Assembly: GCA_900320465.1 (NCBI GenBank)
Contig: ONSQ01000005.1
Span: 1 to 40,833, forward strand
DNA: 40,833 bases
Reading direction: 5' to 3'
From: an uncultured Eubacteriales bacterium
Lineage (GTDB): Bacteria > Bacillota > Clostridia > Oscillospirales > Oscillospiraceae
In this document: in pieces, positions 30,174 through 40,833 of the stretch
Layout: each line of letters starts with the position of its first letter
Numbering within the stretch: position 1 is the stretch's first letter
Program-made: the position numbers and the translations under genes
Notes under the pieces: model-generated
What the model was told of the DNA's origin: nothing
What the model saw: only the letters and a program-made list of their open reading frames with translations
The model's database searches: none

Positions 30174-30255
30174 AAAAGGGGAATGGGGAATGAAAATCAT
30201 TGTCTTTCGTATGCCGCGCTTTCTGAGCAGAATCATACTGCTGTTCCGTCGGCGG

Positions 30256-30284
30256 GAATAATCCTGATCACGGCAACATACGCT
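30256..30284 (+). promoter_or_regulatory. Sigma-E-like sporulation promoter of the SipL-like gene
   Basis: GAATAAT at 30256-30262, a 14-base spacer and CATACGCT at 30277-30284. This resembles the mother-cell sigma-E pattern (a -35 close to ATATT and a -10 close to CATACAnT). It stands 30 bases ahead of the spore-envelope gene start, which fits its role. Confidence 0.5.
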
Positions 30285-30314
30285 GTACAAAGCAAGCAAA
30301 AGGAGTACGAGCCA

Positions 30315-31811
30315 ATGGAAATTCAATTGATCAGAGAATCGATTCCGTTCTGCAGGGAACTTGGGCATCAGACGAAGCTGATCCAAGAGAACGTGGAGAG
30401 CATCGTCTCGGATATATACGAGGATATCGGCGCCATTCTGTCCAGCTGTGCACAGCTATGCCTGAAAAGCAAGGATGTGACGCAGCACGGCGTCAGCATC
30501 ACCGGCAGCGCGGAGATCTGCGTGCTATATATCAACGAAAGCCGCGGCGCGGTTCAGTGTCTCAACCTGTCGAAGGACTTTTCAGCAGATTTTGATCTGC
30601 CGACCGTTACGATCGAGTCGCAATGCCAGGTCTGTCTTCACTGCATGGGTGTGCAGGCGCGCGCGGTCAACTCACGCAAGGTTGCCGTGCAGCTGTCGAT
30701 CCGCGCGGACATGACATGTTGGAGCGACGAATCCCTTTCTTATGCCATGGGTGCGGAGGAGGCAGAGCAAAACGCGCTGTATCTGAAAAGACAAAGCGCG
30801 GTGCTGACTCTTCCCACACAAATAACGGAAAAATCTTTCAGCATCAATGAACAGATCCCGCTAAGCCTTTCGCAGAACACAGCCACACGTGTTCTGAGCA
30901 CGCTCTGTGAGCTCCGCTCACAGGATAGTCAGATGATCGGCGGCAAAGCGCTTATCAAGGGAACGGCTCATGTGCAGTGGCTCACTCTGTCGGACGGAGA
31001 CAGTCTGCCCCAAAGGCAGGAGGCTGCGCTGCCCTTCAGCGTCCTCATCGACGCCGCAGACGAGAAGAGTGTACTCTCCTCCGTCGTCTTTCAGCCGACG
31101 GCAGTCTATTCTTCTTTCAGCGAGGCAATTAACGGCAGCAGCGTCATGGAACTGGAACTGCATGTCATAGCCCAGGCCTGCTTTGAGAAGCAAACAGAGA
31201 TCCGTTATCTGACGGACGCATATAGCACGCGTTATCCGATTGACCTGAAAGACGAAAACACCGTGCTCGCGCTGTCGCGTACTTTCGAAGCAGCCCGCGC
31301 AGAAGCGCAAGAGAGCCTTACTCTCGACGAAGGCGGATTCAACGTCCAGCTGTGCAATGCCCAAATCTTGTCGGTCTCTGTAAAAAATGACACGATCACC
31401 GCTTCCGCTTCGCTCGAAGTGCTGTTGTCGTCCGCAGACGGGACACTTAGTACCGTGCAAAAGCTTGTAAGTGCCCAGACGCCGCTGAGCAAGGGCGACA
31501 TGACCCTGCAGGACGCGGAAATAACTTCTTATTCCTGCGAGCTGAGCGGAAATGAGCTGACGATGAAAGCGTTTTTTTCTTTTCAATTGACCGGACAGGA
31601 AAAGACATCCCTACGCACGTTGAGCGAGGCTGAGCTGGATACGGAAGCGCCTTACTCCGTAAGTTCGCAGCCGCCGCTGAGCGCTGTCAAGCAGCGGGGA
31701 CGCACACTGTGGGAGCTTGCAAAAGCGTACAACTCCAGCGAGGACGCGATCGAGAAGCTGAATGAAAGCTATCCGATGCCAAACGGGATCCTCCTGATCC
31801 CCAGAATATAA
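30315..31811 (+). CDS. sipL: SipL-like spore envelope protein (DUF3794/SPOCS plus LysM-like end)
   Basis: A 498-residue protein built from repeated DUF3794/SPOCS-type beta domains. These occur in spore morphogenetic proteins such as SipL, the SpoIVA partner of clostridia. The C-terminus, RGRTLWELAKAYNSSEDAIE followed by LNESYP and GILLIPRI, resembles a LysM domain, as in SipL. ATG 30315 was chosen because AGGAG sits 9 bases upstream and the SPOCS region begins soon after; longer starts lack a site. A sigma-E-like promoter lies just ahead. The assignment is by architecture, and the SpoIVA-binding residues were not checked. Confidence 0.75.
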   Translation: MEIQLIRESIPFCRELGHQTKLIQENVESIVSDIYEDIGAILSSCAQLCLKSKDVTQHGVSITGSAEICVLYINESRGAVQCLNLSKDFSADFDLPTVTIESQCQVCLHCMGVQARAVNSRKVAVQLSIRADMTCWSDESLSYAMGAEEAEQNALYLKRQSAVLTLPTQITEKSFSINEQIPLSLSQNTATRVLSTLCELRSQDSQMIGGKALIKGTAHVQWLTLSDGDSLPQRQEAALPFSVLIDAADEKSVLSSVVFQPTAVYSSFSEAINGSSVMELELHVIAQACFEKQTEIRYLTDAYSTRYPIDLKDENTVLALSRTFEAARAEAQESLTLDEGGFNVQLCNAQILSVSVKNDTITASASLEVLLSSADGTLSTVQKLVSAQTPLSKGDMTLQDAEITSYSCELSGNELTMKAFFSFQLTGQEKTSLRTLSEAELDTEAPYSVSSQPPLSAVKQRGRTLWELAKAYNSSEDAIEKLNESYPMPNGILLIPRI

Positions 31812-32793: not shown

Positions 32794-32823
32794 TTCGCTT
32801 CTATACGATTAATGGAGACACAC

Positions 32824-34563
32824 ATGGCACACCCACAGAAAAGCATGAAAACCTATACGATGAAGCAGCTCATGGAGCAATACGGTTTTTCCAAGACCTT
32901 CCTTCATCGTCATTTTCCCCATCCGCGCCGTAAAGAGATTCGAGGCGTTGGCACGACCTATGTTTGGACGGAAGATCAGCTTCGACGCGTTCTGAATTCC
33001 AGAGAAGCCATTGAATATCTGAAGCAGAGGAATGAAGAGGCAGACAGAAAAAAGCAGATGCAGGAAATCCGTTCTCTGCTGTCAGACTATACGCCGGAGT
33101 ACTATATCGATCACGCCCGTAAGCTGAGCCATCGCGTTTTCGTCCTGCACGTGGGACCGACCAACAGCGGCAAGACCTTTGACGCCATGGAAGATCTGAA
33201 GGCCAATACGCCGGGCACTTATCTGGGACCGCTGCGTCTGCTGGCTTTGGAAATGGCGGACAAGCTCAACGCAGCCGGGATTCCCACCAGTATGATAACG
33301 GGAGAGGAGACGATACTTGCTCCCGACGCCGTCGTCATAAGCTCCACCATTGAACTCTGTAATTATGAACAGCATTTCAGGACCGCCGTGATCGATGAAG
33401 CGCAGTTGATTGCCGATCCTGACCGCGGCTCGTCCTGGCTCAAGGCTCTTTGCCTTGTTAACGCCGACGTGGTACATGTGTGCATGGCGCCGGAGGCTAG
33501 AAGCTATATCGAGGGACTGATCAAAGATTTCGGCGCGGAGTATGTGGTACGGGAGCATCAGCGGCTGGCGCCTCTGGTGTACGGAGGCGCCTGCAAGGGT
33601 ATCCGCGATCTGCGGGAAGGAGACGCTGTCATTTCCTTTTCCCGGAAGAGCGTTTTGTCCACCGCTGCTCAGCTGGAAAAGAAAGGCTTTCGCGCCAGTG
33701 TGATCTACGGAGCGCTGCCGCCCGAGGCCAGACGCAACGAAGTCAGAAAATACATGTCGGGCCAGACGAATATCGTCTGCGCGACTGACGCCATCGGGCT
33801 GGGAATCAGCTTACCCATCTCCCGCGTCATCTTTGCCGAATCTCAGAAATTCGACGGGAAAGAGCTGCGCAGGCTCACTGTCAGCGAGGTACGTCAGATC
33901 GGTGGGCGCGCGGGTCGTTTCGGACTTAAGGAAAAAGGGGAGGTGCTCCACTTCGGTGACGCCGCCTTTATCGGCCATTATCTCAGCGCCACGCCGCCTA
34001 AAATACGCGCCTGCTGTATCAGCTTTCCCCGGGAGACACTGCAGACGGATTATCCCCTCGATCAGCTGTTTCGCGTCTGGCAGGGGCTGAATAGACAGCC
34101 GGGTTTTGTGCGCGAGGATATGAAGGACGCCTTGATCCTGTACGGGCAGATTCAAAAGCAGGTCAAGAAAGCCAACCGCGAGCTGATCTATGATCTCATT
34201 ACCTGCCCGGTCGACACAAGGAACACCGAGTTGGTGGGCTACTGGGCCGCGTGCGCCTTGGCTATTTTGAAAAACAGAGCGATTCCTCAACCCTATTTCG
34301 GCACTGAATCGCTGCAGGCCTGCGAGCTTCAGTACCGGGCGTATGATATTCACCACCAGTTATTGCGCCGTATCGGCCGTGAGGACGACTGCACCCGTGA
34401 ACGGCAGGAGATCTGTGAAAAGATAGCGCGCTTCATGGCGGCGAGCAAGGACCAGTATATTCGTCGATGCAGGGTCTGCGGACGCGAACTGCCGATCGGC
34501 TATGCGTTCAATACCTGCGAGCGCTGCTTCAGCCTGGGCGCAGTACATAATGGCATCAGCTGA
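32824..34563 (+). CDS. Suv3-like SF2 RNA helicase with C-terminal zinc ribbon
   Basis: A 579-residue helicase resembling the mitochondrial RNA helicase Suv3. After an N-terminal helical region (possibly a helix-turn-helix, YTMKQLMEQYGFSKTFLHRH) it shows Walker A HVGPTNSGKTFDAME (near 109), YLGPLRLLALEMADKLNAAG, motif II VIDEAQLIADPDRG (near 188), motif V CATDAIGLGISLP, and motif VI EVRQIGGRAGRFG (near 357). The C-terminus has paired cysteines, CRVCGRELP and CERC, a likely zinc ribbon. ATG 32824 has GGAG 6 bases upstream; ATG 32812 has no site. In mitochondria the family works with RNA decay enzymes; here it stands alone. Confidence 0.82.
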   Translation: MAHPQKSMKTYTMKQLMEQYGFSKTFLHRHFPHPRRKEIRGVGTTYVWTEDQLRRVLNSREAIEYLKQRNEEADRKKQMQEIRSLLSDYTPEYYIDHARKLSHRVFVLHVGPTNSGKTFDAMEDLKANTPGTYLGPLRLLALEMADKLNAAGIPTSMITGEETILAPDAVVISSTIELCNYEQHFRTAVIDEAQLIADPDRGSSWLKALCLVNADVVHVCMAPEARSYIEGLIKDFGAEYVVREHQRLAPLVYGGACKGIRDLREGDAVISFSRKSVLSTAAQLEKKGFRASVIYGALPPEARRNEVRKYMSGQTNIVCATDAIGLGISLPISRVIFAESQKFDGKELRRLTVSEVRQIGGRAGRFGLKEKGEVLHFGDAAFIGHYLSATPPKIRACCISFPRETLQTDYPLDQLFRVWQGLNRQPGFVREDMKDALILYGQIQKQVKKANRELIYDLITCPVDTRNTELVGYWAACALAILKNRAIPQPYFGTESLQACELQYRAYDIHHQLLRRIGREDDCTRERQEICEKIARFMAASKDQYIRRCRVCGRELPIGYAFNTCERCFSLGAVHNGIS

Positions 34564-34797: not shown

Positions 34798-34831
34798 TGT
34801 GACACTTATGTGACAAAACCTGTGCTAAGAT
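34798..34831 (+). promoter_or_regulatory. Promoter 1 of the GG-leader cluster with TGTGAC direct repeat
   Basis: TGTGAC at 34798-34803 and again at 34809-34814 (11-base period) is followed after eight bases by an extended -10, TGC-TAAGAT (34823-34831). No ordinary -35 is present, and the repeats occupy its place. This looks like an activator-dependent promoter, as for OmpR/PhoP-type response regulators. The same layout recurs at 39136-39169. Confidence 0.7.
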
Positions 34832-34899
34832 ACACCTGCAAACAAAAAAACAGCGAACGCGAGAGCGGACGCACCGAAGAATTGAAAGGAGAAAAAATC

Positions 34900-35232
34900 A
34901 TGAGCGAAATGGAAAAGAAAATCGAGAAGATGGCTGACGAGGCCCTGGGCACTGTGGCTGGCGGCACCTCCGCAAACTACACGGTGGCGGTCGACGTCAT
35001 CAACGGCAAGTATGGCAACGGTGAAGAGCGCCGCCGCAGACTGACCGCGGCTGGTTATGACTACGAGACCGTCCAGGCAATGGTCAATACCATGCTCAAC
35101 GGCTACGACAAGGTCGCCAGAGACGTTATCGAAGGCAAGTACGGCAACGGCCAGGCCCGCGTCAACGCGCTGAAGGCTGCCGGCTATGACGCCGCCAAGG
35201 TCCAGGCTCTTGTGAACGAGATCCTGAAGTAA
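34900..35232 (+). CDS. Double-glycine-leader protein with two CW_7 wall-binding repeats
   Basis: A 110-residue protein. Residues 1-22 form a bacteriocin-type leader ending in LGTVAGG, with hydrophobic residues at -12 (Met), -7 (Leu) and -4 (Val) relative to the cut after GG. The 88-residue remainder is two copies of a CW_7 (Cpl-7 lysozyme-type) module with a 43-residue period: GKYGNGEERRRRLTAAGYDY from residue 36 and GKYGNGQARVNALKAAGYDA from residue 79. CW_7 modules bind peptidoglycan. There is no Sec signal. ATG 34900 has AAGGAG 8 bases upstream. Export by a C39-peptidase ABC transporter is inferred; none is in the window. Confidence 0.85.
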   Translation: MSEMEKKIEKMADEALGTVAGGTSANYTVAVDVINGKYGNGEERRRRLTAAGYDYETVQAMVNTMLNGYDKVARDVIEGKYGNGQARVNALKAAGYDAAKVQALVNEILK

Positions 35233-35262
35233 GCTCCAGAGAGTTACCCGGAGGACTGAAAA

Positions 35263-35526
35263 ATGAGCGATACTATCAAAGTCAATGAAAATGAGCTGAA
35301 TGAAGTCGTCGGCGGCGCCGCCAATTGGCAGCAGTATGCCAAGGGCACCTATGTGAACTACGGCAATCACATTGTTTACACGGTCGCTGTCGGTGATGTT
35401 CTGGGCGGTATCGCCCTCCGCTTCGGCGTGACGGTTGCGCAGATCGCTCAGTGGAACAATATCAAGAACGTCAATCTGATCCACGCCGGCCAGAAGTTCA
35501 CGATCTATCCCACGATCGTTCGCTAA
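35263..35526 (+). CDS. Double-glycine-leader protein with a LysM domain
   Basis: An 87-residue protein with an 18-residue leader ending ENELNEVVGG, an excellent match to the GG consensus (Val -12, Glu -8, Leu -7, Val -4). After about 20 linker residues rich in Asn, Gln and Tyr comes one LysM domain (about 39-82, YTVAVGDVLGGIALRFGVTV followed by AQIAQWNNI). LysM binds N-acetylglucosamine chains in peptidoglycan. The gene starts 30 bases after the CW_7 gene, with CCGGAGG before the ATG, and no terminator lies between them. Predicted fate: leader cleavage during export, then wall binding. Confidence 0.85.
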   Translation: MSDTIKVNENELNEVVGGAANWQQYAKGTYVNYGNHIVYTVAVGDVLGGIALRFGVTVAQIAQWNNIKNVNLIHAGQKFTIYPTIVR

Positions 35527-35586
35527 AGCCTATATGACCCCGCCGGAATCTTATCCCAGGGGGACTTAACCAGAAGGAGAAGAACC

Positions 35587-37485
35587 ATGCTTGCTAAGAA
35601 AAAGATCATCTGCCTCCTGCTTGCCGCTGTGATGCTGCTTTCTCTGGCTGCCTGCGGCACCGCGGCTGCACCTGCCGAGACTGTCGCTCCGGCTGTCGAG
35701 CCGACTGAGGCTCCCGCTGCTGCCCCCGCTCCGGCTGAGGCGGAAGTTGAAATCGTTGATGTTGTTGTGTCGGATATCGACCAGCAGCTCAGTCTCATCT
35801 ATTCCCAGGTCAACACGCTGCTGCAGAAGGGCGGCGCGAATACCTGGTACTACACCGTGGCGGATCTCGACCACGATGGCAGCCTTGAGTTTATCGCCGC
35901 TTCCCAGCACCCTGCCGATCGCTCTACGAACGTACGGATCTGGTCCGTCAACGCAGACAGAACCGGTCTGACGGAGACTGCGCTTCAGAAGGACGAAGAC
36001 GAATCCTTCCCGGATATCCTCACAGACTGCGCGGACGTCTTTCATGTGGAAGCTACCGACACCTGGTATTACCTGATCAACGATAACATCGTGATCTCCG
36101 ATACCGAGATCTACACCATCAAGACCGCAGTTGATTTCAAGAACGGCGTTACCAAGTACACGCCCTTTGCCATCGAGCACATGGTGCTGGATAATGCGCG
36201 CCGCAATGTTTCCCACATGGACACCAACGGCTTTGCCATTTCCCAGGAGCAGTACAACTCTTCCGCCATCAACGCCTTTGTCGGCGCCATCCGCAGCAGC
36301 GTCAGCTTTGAGTGGCTGACGGAAGACAAGGCTGTGAGCCTTTTCAACCTGGCCGACAGCTATGCGGTGTTCATGGGCGAGAAAGCCCCCACCGAGGTCT
36401 ATCCCGTTCCCGAGCCGGCCGCTCTGAGCGATGACAACCCCGCTCTTATCCCGCTGTATGTCAGCAAGAACCCCACCGGAGAGAAGAAGGTGGAGGGCGA
36501 AACCGCACTGTTTATCGCTTACGCCAACCTCTACGACTCTCTAACCTGGACATTTGTGTCTCCCAACGGCGGCGCTTATGCTGTGCAGGGCTTCAAACAG
36601 CTGTTCCCTGGCTGCTCTGTCAGCGGCGAGTACAGCACGACTCTCAGCATTTCCAAGGTTGCTTCGGGCATGAACGGCTGGGGTGTGTTCTGCACCTTCT
36701 ACTACAAGGGCCAGACCGCCCGCACCAGCACGGCATATCTGAGTGTTACGGAAAAGGACAAGCCAGCCCCGACCCCGACGCCCGCGCCGACTGCTGCGCC
36801 GGATCCTTATGATCCGTACCCGACTCGTGAAGACGGAGAGCTCTCCGGTGTCGTGGAGGACTACAACTACGATTACGTTGTCGTCGACGTGACAGGTGTG
36901 GACCTGTTCCATATCTCCAAGGATATGTGCACCATCAGCGGTGAAATCTACATCGGTGCTCCCGCTGTTGTAAAGTATGACGCCCGCGGAGCCAGAGGCG
37001 TCCATGTCTGCGGCTGCACGATCACCGGCCGTGAGCCCGAGCCTCAGCCGGTTTACGGCAGCACCAACGGCACGGTGTACCGTGAGTACGACAATACGCT
37101 TACCGTTTTCCTCAAGGATGACAGCACCATTTCGCTGCCCACCACCTCGAGCGAGAACTATAAGATCGAAATCTACAACGGCACGCTGGAGGACATCGGC
37201 TTCGCCGGCGGTGGTATGGAGTGCCTGATTTACTACGTCAATACGCCTTCTGCCGAGAACGTGTACCTGATCAAGGTCTTCATTGAAAAAGACGCCGCTC
37301 CCGAACCTGATCCCGAGCCCGATGTTCCGGAACCCGCCCCCGAGCCTGACCCGGAGCCTGCTCCCGAACCCGCTACTGAACCTGATCCGGAACCCGCACC
37401 CGAACCCGTTCCTGACCCTGAACCCTCTGATGAGCCCAATCCGTCCGACGAAGGCGGTGAAGGCTCCGGCCAGAGCAACGGCTGA
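35587..37485 (+). CDS. Large lipoprotein with FG-GAP-like, Ig-like and repeat domains and a Pro-Glu tail
   Basis: A 632-residue lipoprotein with lipobox LAAC (Cys23). An Ala/Pro/Glu linker (about 25-55) precedes a domain holding DLDHDGSLEFIAAS, like calcium-binding FG-GAP/VCBS strands. An Ig-like domain (about 285-395) ends before a Pro-Thr linker. Then come two diverged copies of a beta module (about 415-480 and 485-570). The C-terminal 60 residues are a PEP/DPEP-rich tail. It follows the LysM gene by 60 bases with AGAAGGAG before the ATG. The function is unknown. It is a paralogue of the next gene. Confidence 0.8.
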   Translation: MLAKKKIICLLLAAVMLLSLAACGTAAAPAETVAPAVEPTEAPAAAPAPAEAEVEIVDVVVSDIDQQLSLIYSQVNTLLQKGGANTWYYTVADLDHDGSLEFIAASQHPADRSTNVRIWSVNADRTGLTETALQKDEDESFPDILTDCADVFHVEATDTWYYLINDNIVISDTEIYTIKTAVDFKNGVTKYTPFAIEHMVLDNARRNVSHMDTNGFAISQEQYNSSAINAFVGAIRSSVSFEWLTEDKAVSLFNLADSYAVFMGEKAPTEVYPVPEPAALSDDNPALIPLYVSKNPTGEKKVEGETALFIAYANLYDSLTWTFVSPNGGAYAVQGFKQLFPGCSVSGEYSTTLSISKVASGMNGWGVFCTFYYKGQTARTSTAYLSVTEKDKPAPTPTPAPTAAPDPYDPYPTREDGELSGVVEDYNYDYVVVDVTGVDLFHISKDMCTISGEIYIGAPAVVKYDARGARGVHVCGCTITGREPEPQPVYGSTNGTVYREYDNTLTVFLKDDSTISLPTTSSENYKIEIYNGTLEDIGFAGGGMECLIYYVNTPSAENVYLIKVFIEKDAAPEPDPEPDVPEPAPEPDPEPAPEPATEPDPEPAPEPVPDPEPSDEPNPSDEGGEGSGQSNG

Positions 37486-37502
37486 ACCCAGGTTTAAGGC
37501 TT

Positions 37503-39110
37503 ATGATGAAGAACAAAGCGACTATCAGCCTTCTGCTTGCGCTCCTTATGCTTCTGTCCTGCGCTGCCTTCGGCTCCCTTCCGGCGTATGCGGAAGAGGA
37601 TCAGTCGGATATCGACCAGCAGCTGCGTTACATCAGCACCCAGGTAAGCTCGCTCAAGCAGCAGGAAGGGGAGAACCCCTGGTACTATACCGTCACGGAT
37701 CTTGATCACGACGGAAGCCTTGAGTTCGTAGCCGCCTCCCAGCATCCTCAGGATCGTTCCACCAACCTGATGGTCTGGGAGGTCGGCAGCGACCGCAGCA
37801 GCTTGTCGGCCTGTCAGCTCAGCAAGGACGAAGACGAATCCTTTCCGGATATTCTGACTGACAGCGCGGACACCTTCCATGATACGGAGAGCGACACCTG
37901 GTTTTACCTGGTCTACGACAACATCGTGCTTCCCAGCAGCGAGGTGTACACGATCAAAACCGCTGTAAACATGAAAGACGGTGTGGTGGCCTATGATCCC
38001 TACGCCATCGAGCATACCGTCATGAACGGCTCCGGCAGAAGCGTCTCCCACACCGACGTCAACGGCTTCTCCATTTCGGCGGAGGAGTACAACGCAGCAG
38101 GCAACAACGCTTTCCAGAATGCCGAGCGATTCAGCACCAACTTCGAGTGGATCGAAGGCGAGAATGCGGAGGATCTGCACACGCTCACCGACAGTTATGC
38201 TGTTTTTGCCGGCATGAGAAAAGCCACCGAGGTGTTCCCGGTCCCCAAGGATGAGGTCGTTGAAACGCCGGAAGAGACAGTTGTCCCTGTCGAGGCGCCA
38301 AGGCCCACGCCCAAACCGGAACCGAAGTATCTGGTTATTACGAAGAACCCTACCAACGAGTACAACCGCAGAGTCGGCGGTACGGCAAACTTCGTTGCCT
38401 GCGGCAGTTATTTCACCTCACTGAGCTGGACGCTCGTCTCGCCGGATGGCGGTGAATATTCCGCTCAGCAGGCCGGAAGCCTGTTCCCGGGCCTTGTTGT
38501 CTCGGGCGTTGAGAGCACCACGCTGAGCCTGGCCAATCTGAGCGAGAACATGAGCGGTTGGGGCGCTTACTGCACCTTCTATTATGAGGGCCAGACAGCA
38601 CGCACCAGCACAGGCTACATCAGCTTCGCCAAGGATAACAGCACGCCCGCGCCTGCCCAGGGCGGCTCTGCTTCCGGCACCGTTTATGACTGGAATTTCG
38701 GAACTGTCAGTATTCGGCTGGACGACGGGAACACCACCAGCGCGAGCTGGACGGTATGCTCGGTAAGCGGCGATATTTACAACGGTGCGCCTGCAACGAT
38801 CGTCTGGAGGGATTCGATCAGTAATGTGATCTCCTGCTCGATCCATGGCTCTGAAGCCGTGAATCAGCCGGTTTATGCCTCTATGAGCGGAACGGTATCC
38901 GGAATCGGAAATGCCTACACGCTCACCCTCGCCAATGGTACCAGCGTGACTGTAAGCAGCTCCGTCTGTACGCTCAGCTCCGGCGAGTTTGTCGGTGAAG
39001 GTGACAGATGTGTTGTCTATTACACTGACTCGCCGACGCAGGAAAATATCTACAAGGTTGAAGTCCAGGGGCAGTTCAACAGTGTGGAAATCCCGTTCTT
39101 CCAGCCGTAA
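37503..39110 (+). CDS. Exported paralogue of the preceding lipoprotein
   Basis: A 535-residue secreted protein. The N-terminal hydrophobic stretch could end at a lipobox-like LLSC (Cys20) or at a signal peptidase I site after PAYA. After that it parallels its neighbour: DLDHDGSLEFVAASQHP, SKDEDESFPDILTD, an Ig-like domain with SLSWTLVSPDGG, and GAYCTFYYEGQTARTSTGYI. Two copies of the repeated beta module follow (about 390-450 and 455-525). It lacks the Pro-Glu tail and the long N-terminal linker. It starts 17 bases after the first copy with a weak AAGG site, suggesting recent duplication within one operon. Confidence 0.8.
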   Translation: MMKNKATISLLLALLMLLSCAAFGSLPAYAEEDQSDIDQQLRYISTQVSSLKQQEGENPWYYTVTDLDHDGSLEFVAASQHPQDRSTNLMVWEVGSDRSSLSACQLSKDEDESFPDILTDSADTFHDTESDTWFYLVYDNIVLPSSEVYTIKTAVNMKDGVVAYDPYAIEHTVMNGSGRSVSHTDVNGFSISAEEYNAAGNNAFQNAERFSTNFEWIEGENAEDLHTLTDSYAVFAGMRKATEVFPVPKDEVVETPEETVVPVEAPRPTPKPEPKYLVITKNPTNEYNRRVGGTANFVACGSYFTSLSWTLVSPDGGEYSAQQAGSLFPGLVVSGVESTTLSLANLSENMSGWGAYCTFYYEGQTARTSTGYISFAKDNSTPAPAQGGSASGTVYDWNFGTVSIRLDDGNTTSASWTVCSVSGDIYNGAPATIVWRDSISNVISCSIHGSEAVNQPVYASMSGTVSGIGNAYTLTLANGTSVTVSSSVCTLSSGEFVGEGDRCVVYYTDSPTQENIYKVEVQGQFNSVEIPFFQP

Positions 39111-39135
39111 GACGGCATAAAGAGATAATGGAGAG

Positions 39136-39169
39136 TGTGACGGTTCTGTGACGATCGTCATGCTACACT
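39136..39169 (+). promoter_or_regulatory. Promoter 2 of the GG-leader cluster with TGTGAC direct repeat
   Basis: TGTGAC at 39136-39141 and 39147-39152, then eight bases, then an extended -10, TGC-TACACT (39161-39169). Every spacing equals that of promoter 1, and the match resumes at CAAACAA (39177-39183). It drives the single-LysM gene and perhaps the lipoprotein beyond. Confidence 0.7.
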
Positions 39170-39208
39170 CAACACGCAAACAACAAATACCGAATGGAGG
39201 TAAGCCCT

Positions 39209-39415
39209 ATGTCTATGGAAAAGTATGCTCTGAGCGACGATCAGATGGATCTGGTCAGCGGAGGCTCGATCCTTCCTTACCGTGTCCAGCCCGGTGATAC
39301 GCTTGGTGCGATCGCCAAGAAGTACAATGTCACCATCGAGCAGCTGATGAAGTGGAACAACATCCAGAATCCCAATCTGCTGACTGTTGGCCAGCAGCTG
39401 AAGATCAAGTTCTGA
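39209..39415 (+). CDS. Short double-glycine-leader LysM protein
   Basis: A 68-residue protein. The 19-residue leader ends LSDDQMDLVSGG, a textbook GG-leader (Leu -12, Ser -11, Met -7, Val -4). The 49-residue remainder is almost exactly one LysM domain (YRVQPGDTLGAIAKKYNVTI, then EQLMKWNN and the GQQLKIKF end). ATG 39209 is used because TGGAGG lies 8 bases upstream; the in-frame ATG at 39194 would overlap that site. It stands alone under promoter 2 and is closed by a hairpin at 39491-39527. Confidence 0.87.
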   Translation: MSMEKYALSDDQMDLVSGGSILPYRVQPGDTLGAIAKKYNVTIEQLMKWNNIQNPNLLTVGQQLKIKF

Positions 39416-39490
39416 TTGTTTTCCCGCAAGGATTTTGCCGTGTGCGAATCGCTTCGAATCCGCCGACAAGCAGAATCCGCTAAGCAATCG

Positions 39491-39527
39491 GGGGGCCCAG
39501 CGTCTTCTGACGCCGGGCCCTCTGTCT
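39491..39527 (+). terminator. Terminator hairpin after the short LysM gene
   Basis: GGGCCC-A-GCGTC pairs with GACGC-C-GGGCCC around TTCT, leaving one internal mismatch. A modest T-rich tail (TCTGTCT) follows. The likely role is intrinsic termination after the LysM gene. Confidence 0.6.
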
Positions 39528-39551
39528 GCAAAAGTCATCTGAAATTAAGAA

Positions 39552-39560
39552 TGATAGAAT
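39552..39560 (+). promoter_or_regulatory. Extended -10 promoter candidate for the last lipoprotein
   Basis: TGA-TAGAAT at 39552-39560 has the extended -10 form. No good -35 is seen 17 bases upstream. It is directly followed by the palindrome TTGCAATGTATTGCAA, a natural place for a repressor. Confidence 0.45.
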
Positions 39561-39627
39561 TGCAATGTATTGCAAGAGAGCTTTCCATGCTTTTGCGGAA
39601 GGAGAGCTTTCTCGCAATGGATTGCAT
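39560..39627. repeat. Paired palindromes forming a long imperfect hairpin
   Basis: The palindrome TGCAAT-GT-ATTGCA (39561-39574) is repeated imperfectly as CGCAAT-GG-ATTGCA (39613-39626). With the AGAGAGCTTTCC and GGAGAGCTTTCT segments between them, the two halves also pair as one stem of 26-base arms (39561-39586 with 39601-39626), including a few wobbles and mismatches. It may be a double operator or an RNA leader structure. Confidence 0.6.
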
Positions 39628-39631
39628 GACT

Positions 39632-39662
39632 GTGCGTTGGGCCCGGACACGTCTCAACGCAC
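39632..39662 (+). promoter_or_regulatory. Leader hairpin just before the last lipoprotein RBS
   Basis: GTGCGTTG (39632-39639) pairs perfectly with CAACGCAC (39655-39662) around a 15-base loop. It ends only a few bases before the GGGGAAAGGA site, so it could influence translation of the lipoprotein. Confidence 0.5.
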
Positions 39663-39679
39663 GGGGAAAGGATACCTGA

Positions 39680-40833
39680 ATGACAGTTCGAATGAAGAAA
39701 GGCAAATACAATCTGCCGGTCCTGTGCCTGTGCCTGGTCCTGATCGTCTCGCTTTTGAGCGGATGCGGCATGCATGAAGAAACCGTCCGACAGACGGCGA
39801 CGCCCAGCCCGACAGCGCAGAGCAGCAGCACGCCTGCGCCGCAGGACGGCAGCTGGGAGGCAAAGTTTATTCCGATTCAGAACGACGGAAGCTTTGGCAA
39901 GCTGGAAAACATCACCGTACAGAATGACGCCGTTTACTTCACCTCCGTCGGTGTTCTGGAGGATCGGACCCCCGCCGGCGTGACCCCGGAATGGCCTGAG
40001 CAGTACTGGGTATACGGCCCGGTGCTTGTCGAAGCAGACTTTGAAGGCAACACGCATATCATTCCTTATGTGAGCCAGCCGACACAAGCGGATGAAGGGG
40101 AGAACAGCGGCGTCCTGTTTGAAAAGCTGTACGCTGACCCGGATGGAAGCATTTGGGTGCTGGAGAACCACTACACCGTGAACGAAGAGACTTCTGAGCT
40201 GAACACAGTAGAGAAAAACCTGGTCCACCTGACGGTGGACGGAACCGTTCTGCAGAATTTTCCGCTTCTTCATCTGGCACAGCATCGTGAGGATGCGCAG
40301 GGCAAGACTGGAACATACAGTTTTGACGTTGCCGGCATCGTGACTGATGAGACAGGACACGTGTATATGGGGATTCACGAATGGTTCTCCGGCAACGGAA
40401 CCTATAACGCGGCCGATCAGCTTTGTGTGCTGGACGCTGTCAGCGGCGAGCGCACCCACTCCATCGCGCTTTACGGTGAAACCGCAGGACTTGCCCGTCT
40501 GAGCGACGGCAGCATTGTTGTTGCCAGCTACAGCGGTTCCTCCCCGGTCATCGGCCTTGTCGATCTGAAATCGGAAACCATTCAGGAAATAGCCACGCTC
40601 TATGATTTCCTTGACGGGATGGCCGGAAGCCCCGCAGGCACGCAGCTGTACTACAGCGCCGGCGACAGTGTCAGCCGTCTCGATACGGGTGTTGAAGAAT
40701 CCGAAGAAAAGCTGTTTGCCTGGACTGCCTGTGATGTGGCGCATGACGACAGCGACGGTCTGTGCGTTCGCTCCGACGGGTCCGTCGTCACCTTCGTCAC
40801 CGAAGAGACCGGCGCAGCCGTTCACCAGGAGCT
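39680..40833 (+). CDS. Lipoprotein, truncated by the window edge
   Basis: Open from ATG 39680 to the edge, 384 codons and incomplete. The signal peptide ends in the lipobox LSGC (Cys29). A Thr/Ser/Pro/Gln linker (about 35-55) follows. The rest has repeated strands such as DPDGSIWVLENHY, DETGHVYMGIHEWF, VLDAVSGER and LSDGSIVVASYSG, suggesting a beta-propeller-like sensor or ligand-binding fold. AAAGGA stands 7 bases before the ATG; an ATG 12 bases later is possible. It follows the short LysM gene, mirroring the GG-protein plus lipoprotein order of the first cluster. Its C-terminal part is unseen. Confidence 0.8.
   Translation, partial: MTVRMKKGKYNLPVLCLCLVLIVSLLSGCGMHEETVRQTATPSPTAQSSSTPAPQDGSWEAKFIPIQNDGSFGKLENITVQNDAVYFTSVGVLEDRTPAGVTPEWPEQYWVYGPVLVEADFEGNTHIIPYVSQPTQADEGENSGVLFEKLYADPDGSIWVLENHYTVNEETSELNTVEKNLVHLTVDGTVLQNFPLLHLAQHREDAQGKTGTYSFDVAGIVTDETGHVYMGIHEWFSGNGTYNAADQLCVLDAVSGERTHSIALYGETAGLARLSDGSIVVASYSGSSPVIGLVDLKSETIQEIATLYDFLDGMAGSPAGTQLYYSAGDSVSRLDTGVEESEEKLFAWTACDVAHDDSDGLCVRSDGSVVTFVTEETGAAVHQE

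What the first reader, a model, noticed from the sequence alone, without database searches (positions are those of the whole stretch)
34798..40833. Candidate system: double-glycine-leader wall-binding proteins with lipoprotein partners
Seen: three small ORFs with GG leaders whose cargo is CW_7 or LysM, interleaved with two paralogous exported proteins and a third lipoprotein. The order is [promoter, GG gene(s), envelope gene(s)] twice. Known: GG leaders direct cargo to C39-peptidase ABC exporters, mostly for bacteriocins and pheromones, while LysM and CW_7 bind peptidoglycan. Inference: a dedicated route secretes small wall-binding proteins that may decorate the wall, tune hydrolases, act on competitors or serve as ligands for the lipoproteins.
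Basis: partly seen in the sequence, partly recalled or inferred. Interest (0 to 1): 0.92.

Follow-up and report, generated by a model that had tools for sequence, protein, structure and literature searches.

The report
Double-glycine export of wall-binding proteins
A group of gut bacteria, mostly known from the rumen, appears to switch on, with one shared promoter type, many small proteins that a bacteriocin-style exporter would trim and release and that should then stick to cell walls, a use of this export route that is hardly described.

Summary
The window has three double-glycine (GG) leader genes (2xCW_7, LysM, LysM), two paralogous exported proteins and a cut lipoprotein gene. The only C39 peptidase found in the genome is in an NHLM-type exporter on contig C58, over the curated cut-off. 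C58 also carries paralogues of the window's CW_7, both LysM and exported genes. Relatives keep GG-CW_7/LysM genes beside the exporter.

Both window units start with TGTGAC-N5-TGTGAC at fixed distance from a -10-like box. Of 100 sampled exact sites (293 in 42 genus genomes), 66 lead into a GG-leader ORF; random positions: 128 of 5000. Of 65 distinct GG proteins, 29 match LysM, 9 CW_7, 7 PepSY. All 36 genus genomes with a close RR1 response regulator have the promoter; 6 of 65 without do.

Best reading: a response-regulator-controlled GG secretome, rich in non-catalytic wall-binding domains, probably coating the producer's own wall. Export and regulation are inferred from sequence; the role is open.

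The parts
34798..34831 (+). Promoter 1: direct repeat TGTGAC-N5-TGTGAC (34798-34814) and -10-like box TAAGAT (34826-34831)
   Evidence: Exact match to the own-genome pattern and to the genus pattern, which has 0 reversed-control matches in the 101 genomes
34900..35232 (+). GG-leader protein with two CW_7 repeats (110 aa; leader ends ...GTVAGG)
   Evidence: (repeats 34981-35097 and 35107-35226); homologues with leader in relatives; Arg and Gln of the docking site kept
35263..35526 (+). GG-leader LysM protein, type a (87 aa; leader ends ...EVVGG)
   Evidence: 68% identical C58 copy
35587..37485 (+). Exported protein EXP1 (632 aa, lipobox-like signal by eye) with an acidic Pro-rich tail
   Evidence: a homologue (L196, E 1.5e-101) lies directly under the same promoter in G381
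37503..39110 (+). Exported protein EXP2 (535 aa), paralogue of EXP1; Ig-like middle part in a low-confidence model
   Evidence: mean pLDDT 69; PDB matches mostly immunoglobulin-type, TM by query 0.10-0.18 in the 50 rows shown
39136..39169 (+). Promoter 2: TGTGAC-N5-TGTGAC and -10-like box TACACT (39164-39169)
39209..39415 (+). GG-leader LysM protein, type b (68 aa; leader ends ...LVSGG)
   Evidence: 71% identical C58 copy
39484..39529 (+). Stable hairpin after the LysM gene (possible terminator or processing site; no clear T-run)
   Evidence: not listed by the terminator scan
39680..40833 (+). LP3: lipoprotein-like ORF cut by the contig end
   Evidence: relatives of 832 and 840 stop-to-stop residues lie beside a CW_7 fragment and a GG-LysM gene (L033) and a GG-CW_7 gene (L039); another (L227, E 4.9e-66) is directly under the promoter; the L033 relative has a solute-binding-protein match just under the Pfam cut-off (24.9 vs 26)

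Best explanation
The window carries two transcription units of a genus-wide double-glycine secretome. A response regulator (RR1, on contig C58) binds a direct repeat (TGTGAC-N5-TGTGAC) that takes the place of a -35 box and switches on many small genes [inferred]. Their products carry a short leader (about [LIM]-N-[DE]-E-E-L-x-x-V-[SAT]-GG) that the C39 domain of the NHLM-type exporter ABC1 cuts after GG while ABC1, with ABC2 and a short HlyD-like protein, moves the small domain out [inferred from the leader, the exporter with visible Cys, His and Asp motifs, and their linkage]. Outside, the LysM and CW_7 domains, which have no catalytic part, bind peptidoglycan non-covalently and coat or tune the producer's own wall together with co-regulated exported proteins of the EXP family [inferred, least certain step].
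For: The only C39 domain found in the genome is in ABC1, over the TIGR03796 cut-off (937.6 vs 853.3), beside ABC2, over the TIGR03797 cut-off (721.3 vs 709.4); motifs ECG, HFVVL, NDP present (roles recalled). C58 carries paralogues of the window's CW_7, LysM a, LysM b and EXP genes plus a third GG-LysM. 58 leaders: GG 58 of 58, -7 Leu 50, -4 Val 49, -10 Asp 49. GG-CW_7/LysM genes near ABC1 in L021, L024, L025, L028, L029, L031, L032, L039, L040 and in L094-L097, L099; L031 and L095 share sequence and contig length. In 36 of 53 genus genomes with a small-frame CW_7 match a C39 domain is within 12 kb on the same contig, 28 within 6 kb. Promoter: 66 of 100 sampled sites lead into a GG ORF, 58 of 89 without the own genome, vs 128 of 5000 random positions. 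Other ORFs under it include EXP and LP3 homologues. RR1 with promoter 36 of 36, without RR1 6 of 65. All 54 CW_7 repeats that the script could read in 29 proteins keep the Arg and Gln that contact the muropeptide in the Cpl-7 docking model (passages of PMC5705596). Precedents: EbfG/PteB and MAM.
Against: No expression, secretion or cleavage data. 27 of 65 regulon GG proteins match neither LysM nor CW_7. Some look bacteriocin-like: L161 is over the Lactococcin-like Pfam cut-off (28.7 vs 23.1; stretch 1-36, so mostly its leader), L213 has weak glycine-zipper and class IIc matches. Small membrane proteins under the promoter (C12 and C79, related to each other at E 4.7e-10) could be immunity proteins. 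At 31 of 100 sites no GG-like ORF was flagged and 3 flagged ones are signal peptides. Only 32 of 58 GG-LysM/CW_7 genes have the repeat with at most 1 mismatch in the 285 bases examined upstream (random windows 14 of 3000); in named loci 12 of 30. 19 of 53 genomes with a small CW_7 ORF lack the exact promoter. The HlyD-like protein is about 143 residues and far below the TIGR03794 cut-off (29.1 vs 156.2). No sensor kinase was identified. The RR1 cut was chosen after seeing the list, and the co-occurrence is not corrected for shared ancestry. The genome is about 80% complete, so a second exporter may be missing.
Confidence: 0.62

Rival explanations
1. Antagonism: the GG proteins are non-lytic, wall-binding bacteriocin-like factors. 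They are cut and exported by the same route but act on neighbours' walls, with co-regulated small membrane proteins or lipoproteins giving self-protection.
For: GG/C39 export is typical of bacteriocins. Some cargo matches bacteriocin models: one over a Pfam cut-off (L161, Lactococcin-like), one glycine-zipper protein (L213), and weak TIGR01847 matches in 17 of 65 (best E 0.014). Two related small membrane proteins lie under the promoter. Several near-identical LysM genes in G391.
Against: LysM/CW_7 window proteins show no other domain over a Pfam cut-off; LysM and CW_7 bind generic peptidoglycan (recalled; for CW_7), which gives little target selectivity; EXP and LP3 homologues are co-regulated.
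Confidence: 0.2
2. Hydrolase or muropeptide control: the exported single domains compete with LysM/CW_7 hydrolases for substrate or capture muropeptides, and so regulate wall turnover or signalling.
For: The cargo resembles binding modules of wall hydrolases without the enzyme; PepSY cargo (7 of 65) belongs to a family associated with peptidase inhibition (recalled).
Against: No hydrolase was recognised by eye among the 26 non-GG ORFs at sampled sites, but only their first 75 residues were printed and they were not searched for domains. Not tested directly.
Confidence: 0.12
3. The N-terminal segments are not leaders but a retained part of the proteins; the GG is a coincidence.
For: No experiment shows cleavage.
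Against: The same leader pattern precedes unrelated domains (LysM, CW_7, PepSY, GGx, zinc-ribbon-like). GG stands in 65 of 65 of these by selection, and in 58 of 65 small ORFs found by domain, plus 2 by eye; the exporter gene is often nearby.
Confidence: 0.03

Closest known systems
MAM of Faecalibacterium (PMC12184118, passages including part of the abstract; PMC8836110, passages and section 5)
   Same: Gut Firmicute; short GG leader; C39 ABC exporter (PCAT); the product is an abundant envelope protein; HlyD-like and Ig-domain proteins near mam.
   Different: MAM is a mainly helical protein proposed to form a lattice; 'LysM' has 0 occurrences in the main text of both papers. A shared promoter repeat or response regulator was not mentioned in the passages seen.
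EbfG1-4 / PteB of Synechococcus elongatus (PMC4997328, passages)
   Same: Small GG-motif proteins secreted by a C39 transporter with a non-bacteriocin role (biofilm), shown there by mutation and mass spectrometry.
   Different: Mature EbfG proteins have no domains of known function; here much of the cargo is recognisable wall-binding modules.
NHLM export cassette (TIGR03794, TIGR03796, TIGR03797; PMC2887384, passages)
   Same: ABC1 with C39 and ABC2 pass the curated cut-offs; HlyD-like gene adjacent.
   Different: Window GG proteins are not NHLP/Nif11 precursors by the curated cut-offs; HlyD-like protein is truncated; no RiPP-modifying enzyme was recognised by eye in C58:8000-26899.
Cpl-7 CW_7 and LysM wall-binding modules of lysins and hydrolases (PMC5705596, passages)
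   Same: Same domains; docking-model contact residues of CW_7 kept in 54 of 54 readable repeats.
   Different: No enzyme attached; GG leader instead of phage or Sec delivery.

Membership tests
GG-leader substrates of C39 (PCAT) exporters | Short N-terminal leader with GG at -2/-1 and hydrophobic -4, -7, -12 | tested here: met
   Window three of three; 58 leaders in relatives
GG-leader substrates of C39 (PCAT) exporters | C39 exporter in the genome | tested here: met
   One C39 match, on C58, with GG-LysM/CW_7 genes on the same contig
GG-leader substrates of C39 (PCAT) exporters | Cleavage after GG and export | not testable with these tools
   Needs protein data
NHLM export cassette | TIGR03796 over cut-off | tested here: met
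   937.6 vs 853.3 bits
NHLM export cassette | TIGR03797 over cut-off | tested here: met
   721.3 vs 709.4 bits
NHLM export cassette | TIGR03794 HlyD protein over cut-off | tested here: not met
   29.1 vs 156.2 bits, first 50 of 421 positions only
NHLM export cassette | NHLP or Nif11 precursor | tested here: not met
   Window GG proteins: none over the cut-offs; CW_7 protein has a weak Nif11 match outside its leader (13.4 vs 32.3). 4 of 65 regulon proteins match the Nif11 leader model at E up to 0.1, best 1.6e-5
Class II bacteriocin (window proteins) | Curated class II model over its cut-off | tested here: not met
   LysM a: TIGR01847 13.3 vs 15.7, TIGR03949 11.4 vs 21.5; LysM b: CTB family 14.8 vs 32; CW_7: none. 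Elsewhere in the regulon L161 is over the Lactococcin-like cut-off
Class II bacteriocin (window proteins) | Antimicrobial activity and immunity gene | not testable with these tools
   Small membrane ORFs under the promoter are only candidates
MAM-type envelope protein | Sequence similarity to MAM | not tested
   MAM was not fetched or compared; the likeness is in leader, exporter and location only
OmpR/PhoB-type direct-repeat regulation by RR1 | Receiver plus Trans_reg_C output domain | tested here: inconclusive
   RR1: Response_reg 46.1 (cut-off 30.2), Trans_reg_C 15.2 vs 26.2; RR2: 77.1 and 24.2 vs 26.2
OmpR/PhoB-type direct-repeat regulation by RR1 | Direct repeats with an 11-base period upstream of target genes | tested here: met
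   that this period is typical of the class is recalled

The most novel reading that the evidence does not exclude
A response-regulator-controlled, Sec-independent pathway in which a bacteriocin-type exporter trims and delivers a large, duplicating set of single wall-binding domains that clip onto the producer's peptidoglycan: a renewable, non-covalent coat made by a GG secretome.
Probability: 0.42. Interest if true: 0.9.

Novelty: new variant of a known kind. Interest (0 to 1): 0.82.

Why it matters
GG leaders with C39 exporters are mined mainly for bacteriocins and pheromones. Here one promoter pattern, used without looking at the proteins, pulls out 65 distinct GG proteins of which 29 match LysM and 9 CW_7. 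That gives a way to find surface proteins that signal-peptide predictors miss, warns against calling every GG gene a bacteriocin in rumen and gut genomes, and makes a direct test possible: does a C39 exporter build part of the bacterial surface? In the library searched (open PubMed Central papers), I found no paper tying GG leaders to LysM or CW_7 cargo; the searches were made, of which I saw listings, plus passages of the papers named in this report.

Tried and rejected
Chance GG: rejected by leader conservation and by promoter-only sampling with a random-position control. The control loci (40 exporter loci and the window) themselves hold GG genes, so the control is if anything too high. The promoter pattern was drawn from own-genome sites, so own-genome enrichment is partly circular; without its 11 sites the result is 58 of 89.

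Other kinds of CW_7 ORF: 22 ORFs over 250 aa were set aside; 6 of them have a GG within 25 residues before the domain, but only L096 looks like a leader by eye (its long frame holds a GG-CW_7 gene). Order-wide search: 14 of 295 genomes match, only the own one over the full length; the other 13 have partial matches, nearly all in frames of 242 aa or more. Class-wide search with GG-LysM b: 249 of 391 genomes match; in the rows listed (list cut) only the two own-genome type-b proteins match 1-68, and the 11 rows of other genomes that start at positions 5-10 lie in frames over 500 aa; small frames without leader coverage in other genomes were not read. So I know the wall-binding form from this genus, from genus g218 (L096, L099) and from named, mostly rumen assemblies whose genus I did not determine.

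EXP fold: low confidence, so only 'Ig-like part' is taken from it. The sigma-70 scan did not list the two promoters. SH3-like cargo: L191 hits SH3_3 below cut-off (18.3 vs 27), while the own C76 protein hits the first 79 positions of Peptidase_C69 models, so its nature is unclear. Papers: Lactobacillus reuteri LysM/YG proteins and C. tyrobutyricum mention both terms without linking them (passages); the Hungate1000 rumen paper has no hit for peptidoglycan or NHLP (passages).

Dropped rows: of 65 small domain ORFs, 7 were not scored GG: 2 have GG by eye (L032:10373, L026:1223), 2 are cut by contig ends, 1 is a shifted-frame fragment (L025:10463), 2 (L045 242 aa, L043 206 aa) have no leader. The 4 large-frame LysM matches of the own genome were not read for leaders. 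G313 and G365 were removed from the CW_7 count (frames over 300 aa). Named loci and G genomes overlap (L031 with L095, L021 with L071), so counts from the two collections are not independent. A line saying all 53 CW_7 genomes have C39 is a script artefact; its table and one search give 51 of 53. In one search I had typed mostly one CW_7 place per genome, partly those on exporter contigs; one search repeats the count with the 84 listed small-frame places and gives the same 36 of 53.
Full report
What is in the window. The window is a whole contig (C78, 40833 bases) of a 2.36 Mb assembly of 148 contigs, 80.44% complete. From 34798 it reads: promoter repeat, GG-leader 2xCW_7 gene (34900-35232), GG-leader LysM gene (35263-35526), exported protein EXP1 (35587-37485), its paralogue EXP2 (37503-39110), a second promoter repeat (39136), another GG-leader LysM gene (39209-39415), a strong hairpin, and a lipoprotein-like gene cut by the contig end.

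The exporter. A search for the C39 peptidase in the own genome gives one match, on C58. The protein is over the TIGR03796 (NHLM_micro_ABC1) cut-off and its neighbour over the TIGR03797 (ABC2) cut-off; the HlyD-like protein beside ABC1 is short and matches only the first 50 positions of TIGR03794. Cys, His and Asp motifs are visible (roles recalled). The same contig carries paralogues of the window's CW_7, LysM a, LysM b and EXP genes, a third GG-LysM gene, a GG protein (GGx) similar to part of some EXP homologues, two response regulators, a protein without a Pfam or NCBIfam match next to RR1, and a DUF218 protein. A third GG-CW_7 gene is on C12.

Leaders. In the own genome LysM has 9 matches: 5 in small frames (82-103 aa), all with GG leaders, and 4 in large frames (356-433 aa), not read further. 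CW_7 has 6 matches in 3 small ORFs, all with GG leaders. Across fetched loci, 58 of 65 distinct small LysM or CW_7 ORFs were scored GG by script and 2 more by eye; the 5 left are 2 cut by contig ends, 1 shifted-frame fragment and 2 longer ORFs. Position by position the conserved places are -12, -10, -7, -4 and GG, the pattern described for PCAT substrates (PMC12184118, passages; the -10 preference is extra). These loci were mostly found with GG proteins or the exporter as query, so this count alone is biased; the promoter test below is not.

Neighbourhood in relatives. The scan of named genomes with the three CW_7 proteins found 23 loci, many of them rumen assemblies titled Oscillospiraceae, Ruminococcaceae or Clostridiales (that RUG and similar names mean rumen is recalled). 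ABC1 and ABC2 are within the fetched flanks in 10 of 23 (L021, L024, L025, L028, L029, L031, L032, L038, L039, L040; in L038 the CW_7 gene is cut before its leader). The family-wide search has TIGR03796 over cut-off in 34 of 300 genomes. Of 40 exporter loci that I read from it (35 over the cut-off, 5 below), 5 have GG-LysM or GG-CW_7 cargo beside ABC1 (L094, L095, L097 of this genus; L096, L099 of genus g218); the others show other GG proteins or none flagged. So the exporter family serves varied GG cargo. In the genus, 55 of 101 genomes match the CW_7 model. Of 53 with a small-frame match, 51 have C39, and in 36 a C39 domain lies within 12 kb on the same contig (28 within 6 kb).

One promoter for many. 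Both window units start with TGTGAC-N5-TGTGAC. In the own genome this short pattern with up to one mismatch has 19 places against 1 for the reversed control. The long form with a fixed -10-like box (TGTG-N7-TGTGA-N10-GNTANNNT) has 13 exact places and 3 with one mismatch against 0. Nine of these 16 lead directly into GG genes: CW_7 three times, LysM b twice, LysM a, LysM c, GGx and a new GG gene on C76. The rest lead into two lipoprotein-like ORFs, two related small membrane proteins, a LURP-like protein (recalled likeness), an acidic secreted ORF, and one site has no ORF. In the genus, the stricter form beginning TGTGAC is found exactly in 42 of 101 genomes, 293 places by my sum of the table, up to 19 in a genome, with no control match in any row. 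I read 100 distinct exact sites: all 19, 19 and 18 listed sites of G381, G317 and G391, 5 of 10 of G309, and those in the loci returned. The script flagged 69; 3 are ordinary signal peptides, leaving 66 GG ORFs (58 of 89 without the own genome); 26 sites lead to other ORFs, 4 to none, 1 is cut. The same rule on random positions gives 128 of 5000. Of the 65 distinct GG proteins, 29 match LysM, 9 CW_7 and 7 PepSY at E 0.001. Among the 26 other ORFs are two with similarity to EXP (L196, E 1.5e-101; L175, 3.5e-28) and one to LP3 (L227, 4.9e-66). In the other direction the link is looser: of the 58 GG-LysM/CW_7 genes, 32 have the repeat with at most one mismatch in the 285 bases examined upstream (random windows 14 of 3000); some of the rest are second or later genes of a cluster, and 19 of 53 genomes with a small CW_7 ORF lack the exact pattern.

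Regulator. RR1 orthologues with 63% identity or more are in 36 of 101 genomes, all 36 with the promoter; 6 of 65 genomes without have it. The next match is at 37% identity, so the cut is natural, but it was set after looking, and relatedness within the genus was not corrected for. RR1 has a receiver domain and a sub-threshold Trans_reg_C match. RR1 as activator is therefore likely, not shown.

Ligands. In 29 CW_7 proteins all 54 repeats that the script could read keep the Arg and Gln that contact the muropeptide GMDP in the Cpl-7 docking model; the paper tested mutants of both, but their outcome was not in the passages I saw (PMC5705596). The cargo can be expected to bind peptidoglycan. Nothing shows whose wall.

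Mechanism and doubt. The chain promoter, leader, C39 exporter, wall-binding domain is coherent and each link has comparative support; none has experimental support here. Decoration or tuning of the producer's wall is preferred because LysM/CW_7 cargo shows no killing part, because EXP and LP3 homologues share the promoter, and because GG cargo with surface or community roles is known from MAM and EbfG. Against it stand bacteriocin-like regulon members (L161, L213), immunity-like small membrane proteins and many members of unknown kind.

Novelty. Exporter family and domains are known; the use of a GG/C39 route for a regulated set of single wall-binding domains was not found in print in the searches named, which cover open PubMed Central papers only.

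Noticed in passing
L185, L184, L195, L221, L213, L232-L234 (genus genomes): The same promoter drives GG proteins with PepSY domains, an unknown family around 'VDDGDG-KFWLVRQ', zinc-ribbon-like cargo (by eye) and a glycine-zipper protein.
   Followed up: partly
G000:C12:727 and G000:C79:5376 (L139, L149): Two small membrane proteins (64 and 74 aa), similar at E 4.7e-10, sit directly under the promoter; candidates for immunity or accessory proteins.
   Followed up: partly
G000:C76:16548 (L153:1614-1895): GG protein of 94 aa that matches the first 79 positions of Peptidase_C69 models; a look-alike (L191) weakly matches SH3_3.
   Followed up: partly
L002:16145-18899: A site-specific-recombinase-like and a mobilisation-type ORF (by eye) follow RR2 on C58, so the cluster may border a mobile element.
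   Followed up: no
L080-L119: NHLM-type exporters over the curated cut-off occur in 34 of 300 genomes of the family, several with other unstudied GG cargo nearby.
   Followed up: partly
L198:1299-1679: A LysM protein with what looks like two successive GG-leader motifs before the domain.
   Followed up: no
window 32812-34563: ORF upstream of the finding resembles a SUV3-like RNA helicase (recalled, not searched).
   Followed up: no
window 30183-31811: ORF resembling a SipL-type sporulation protein with a LysM-like C-terminus and no GG leader seen (recalled, not searched).
   Followed up: no
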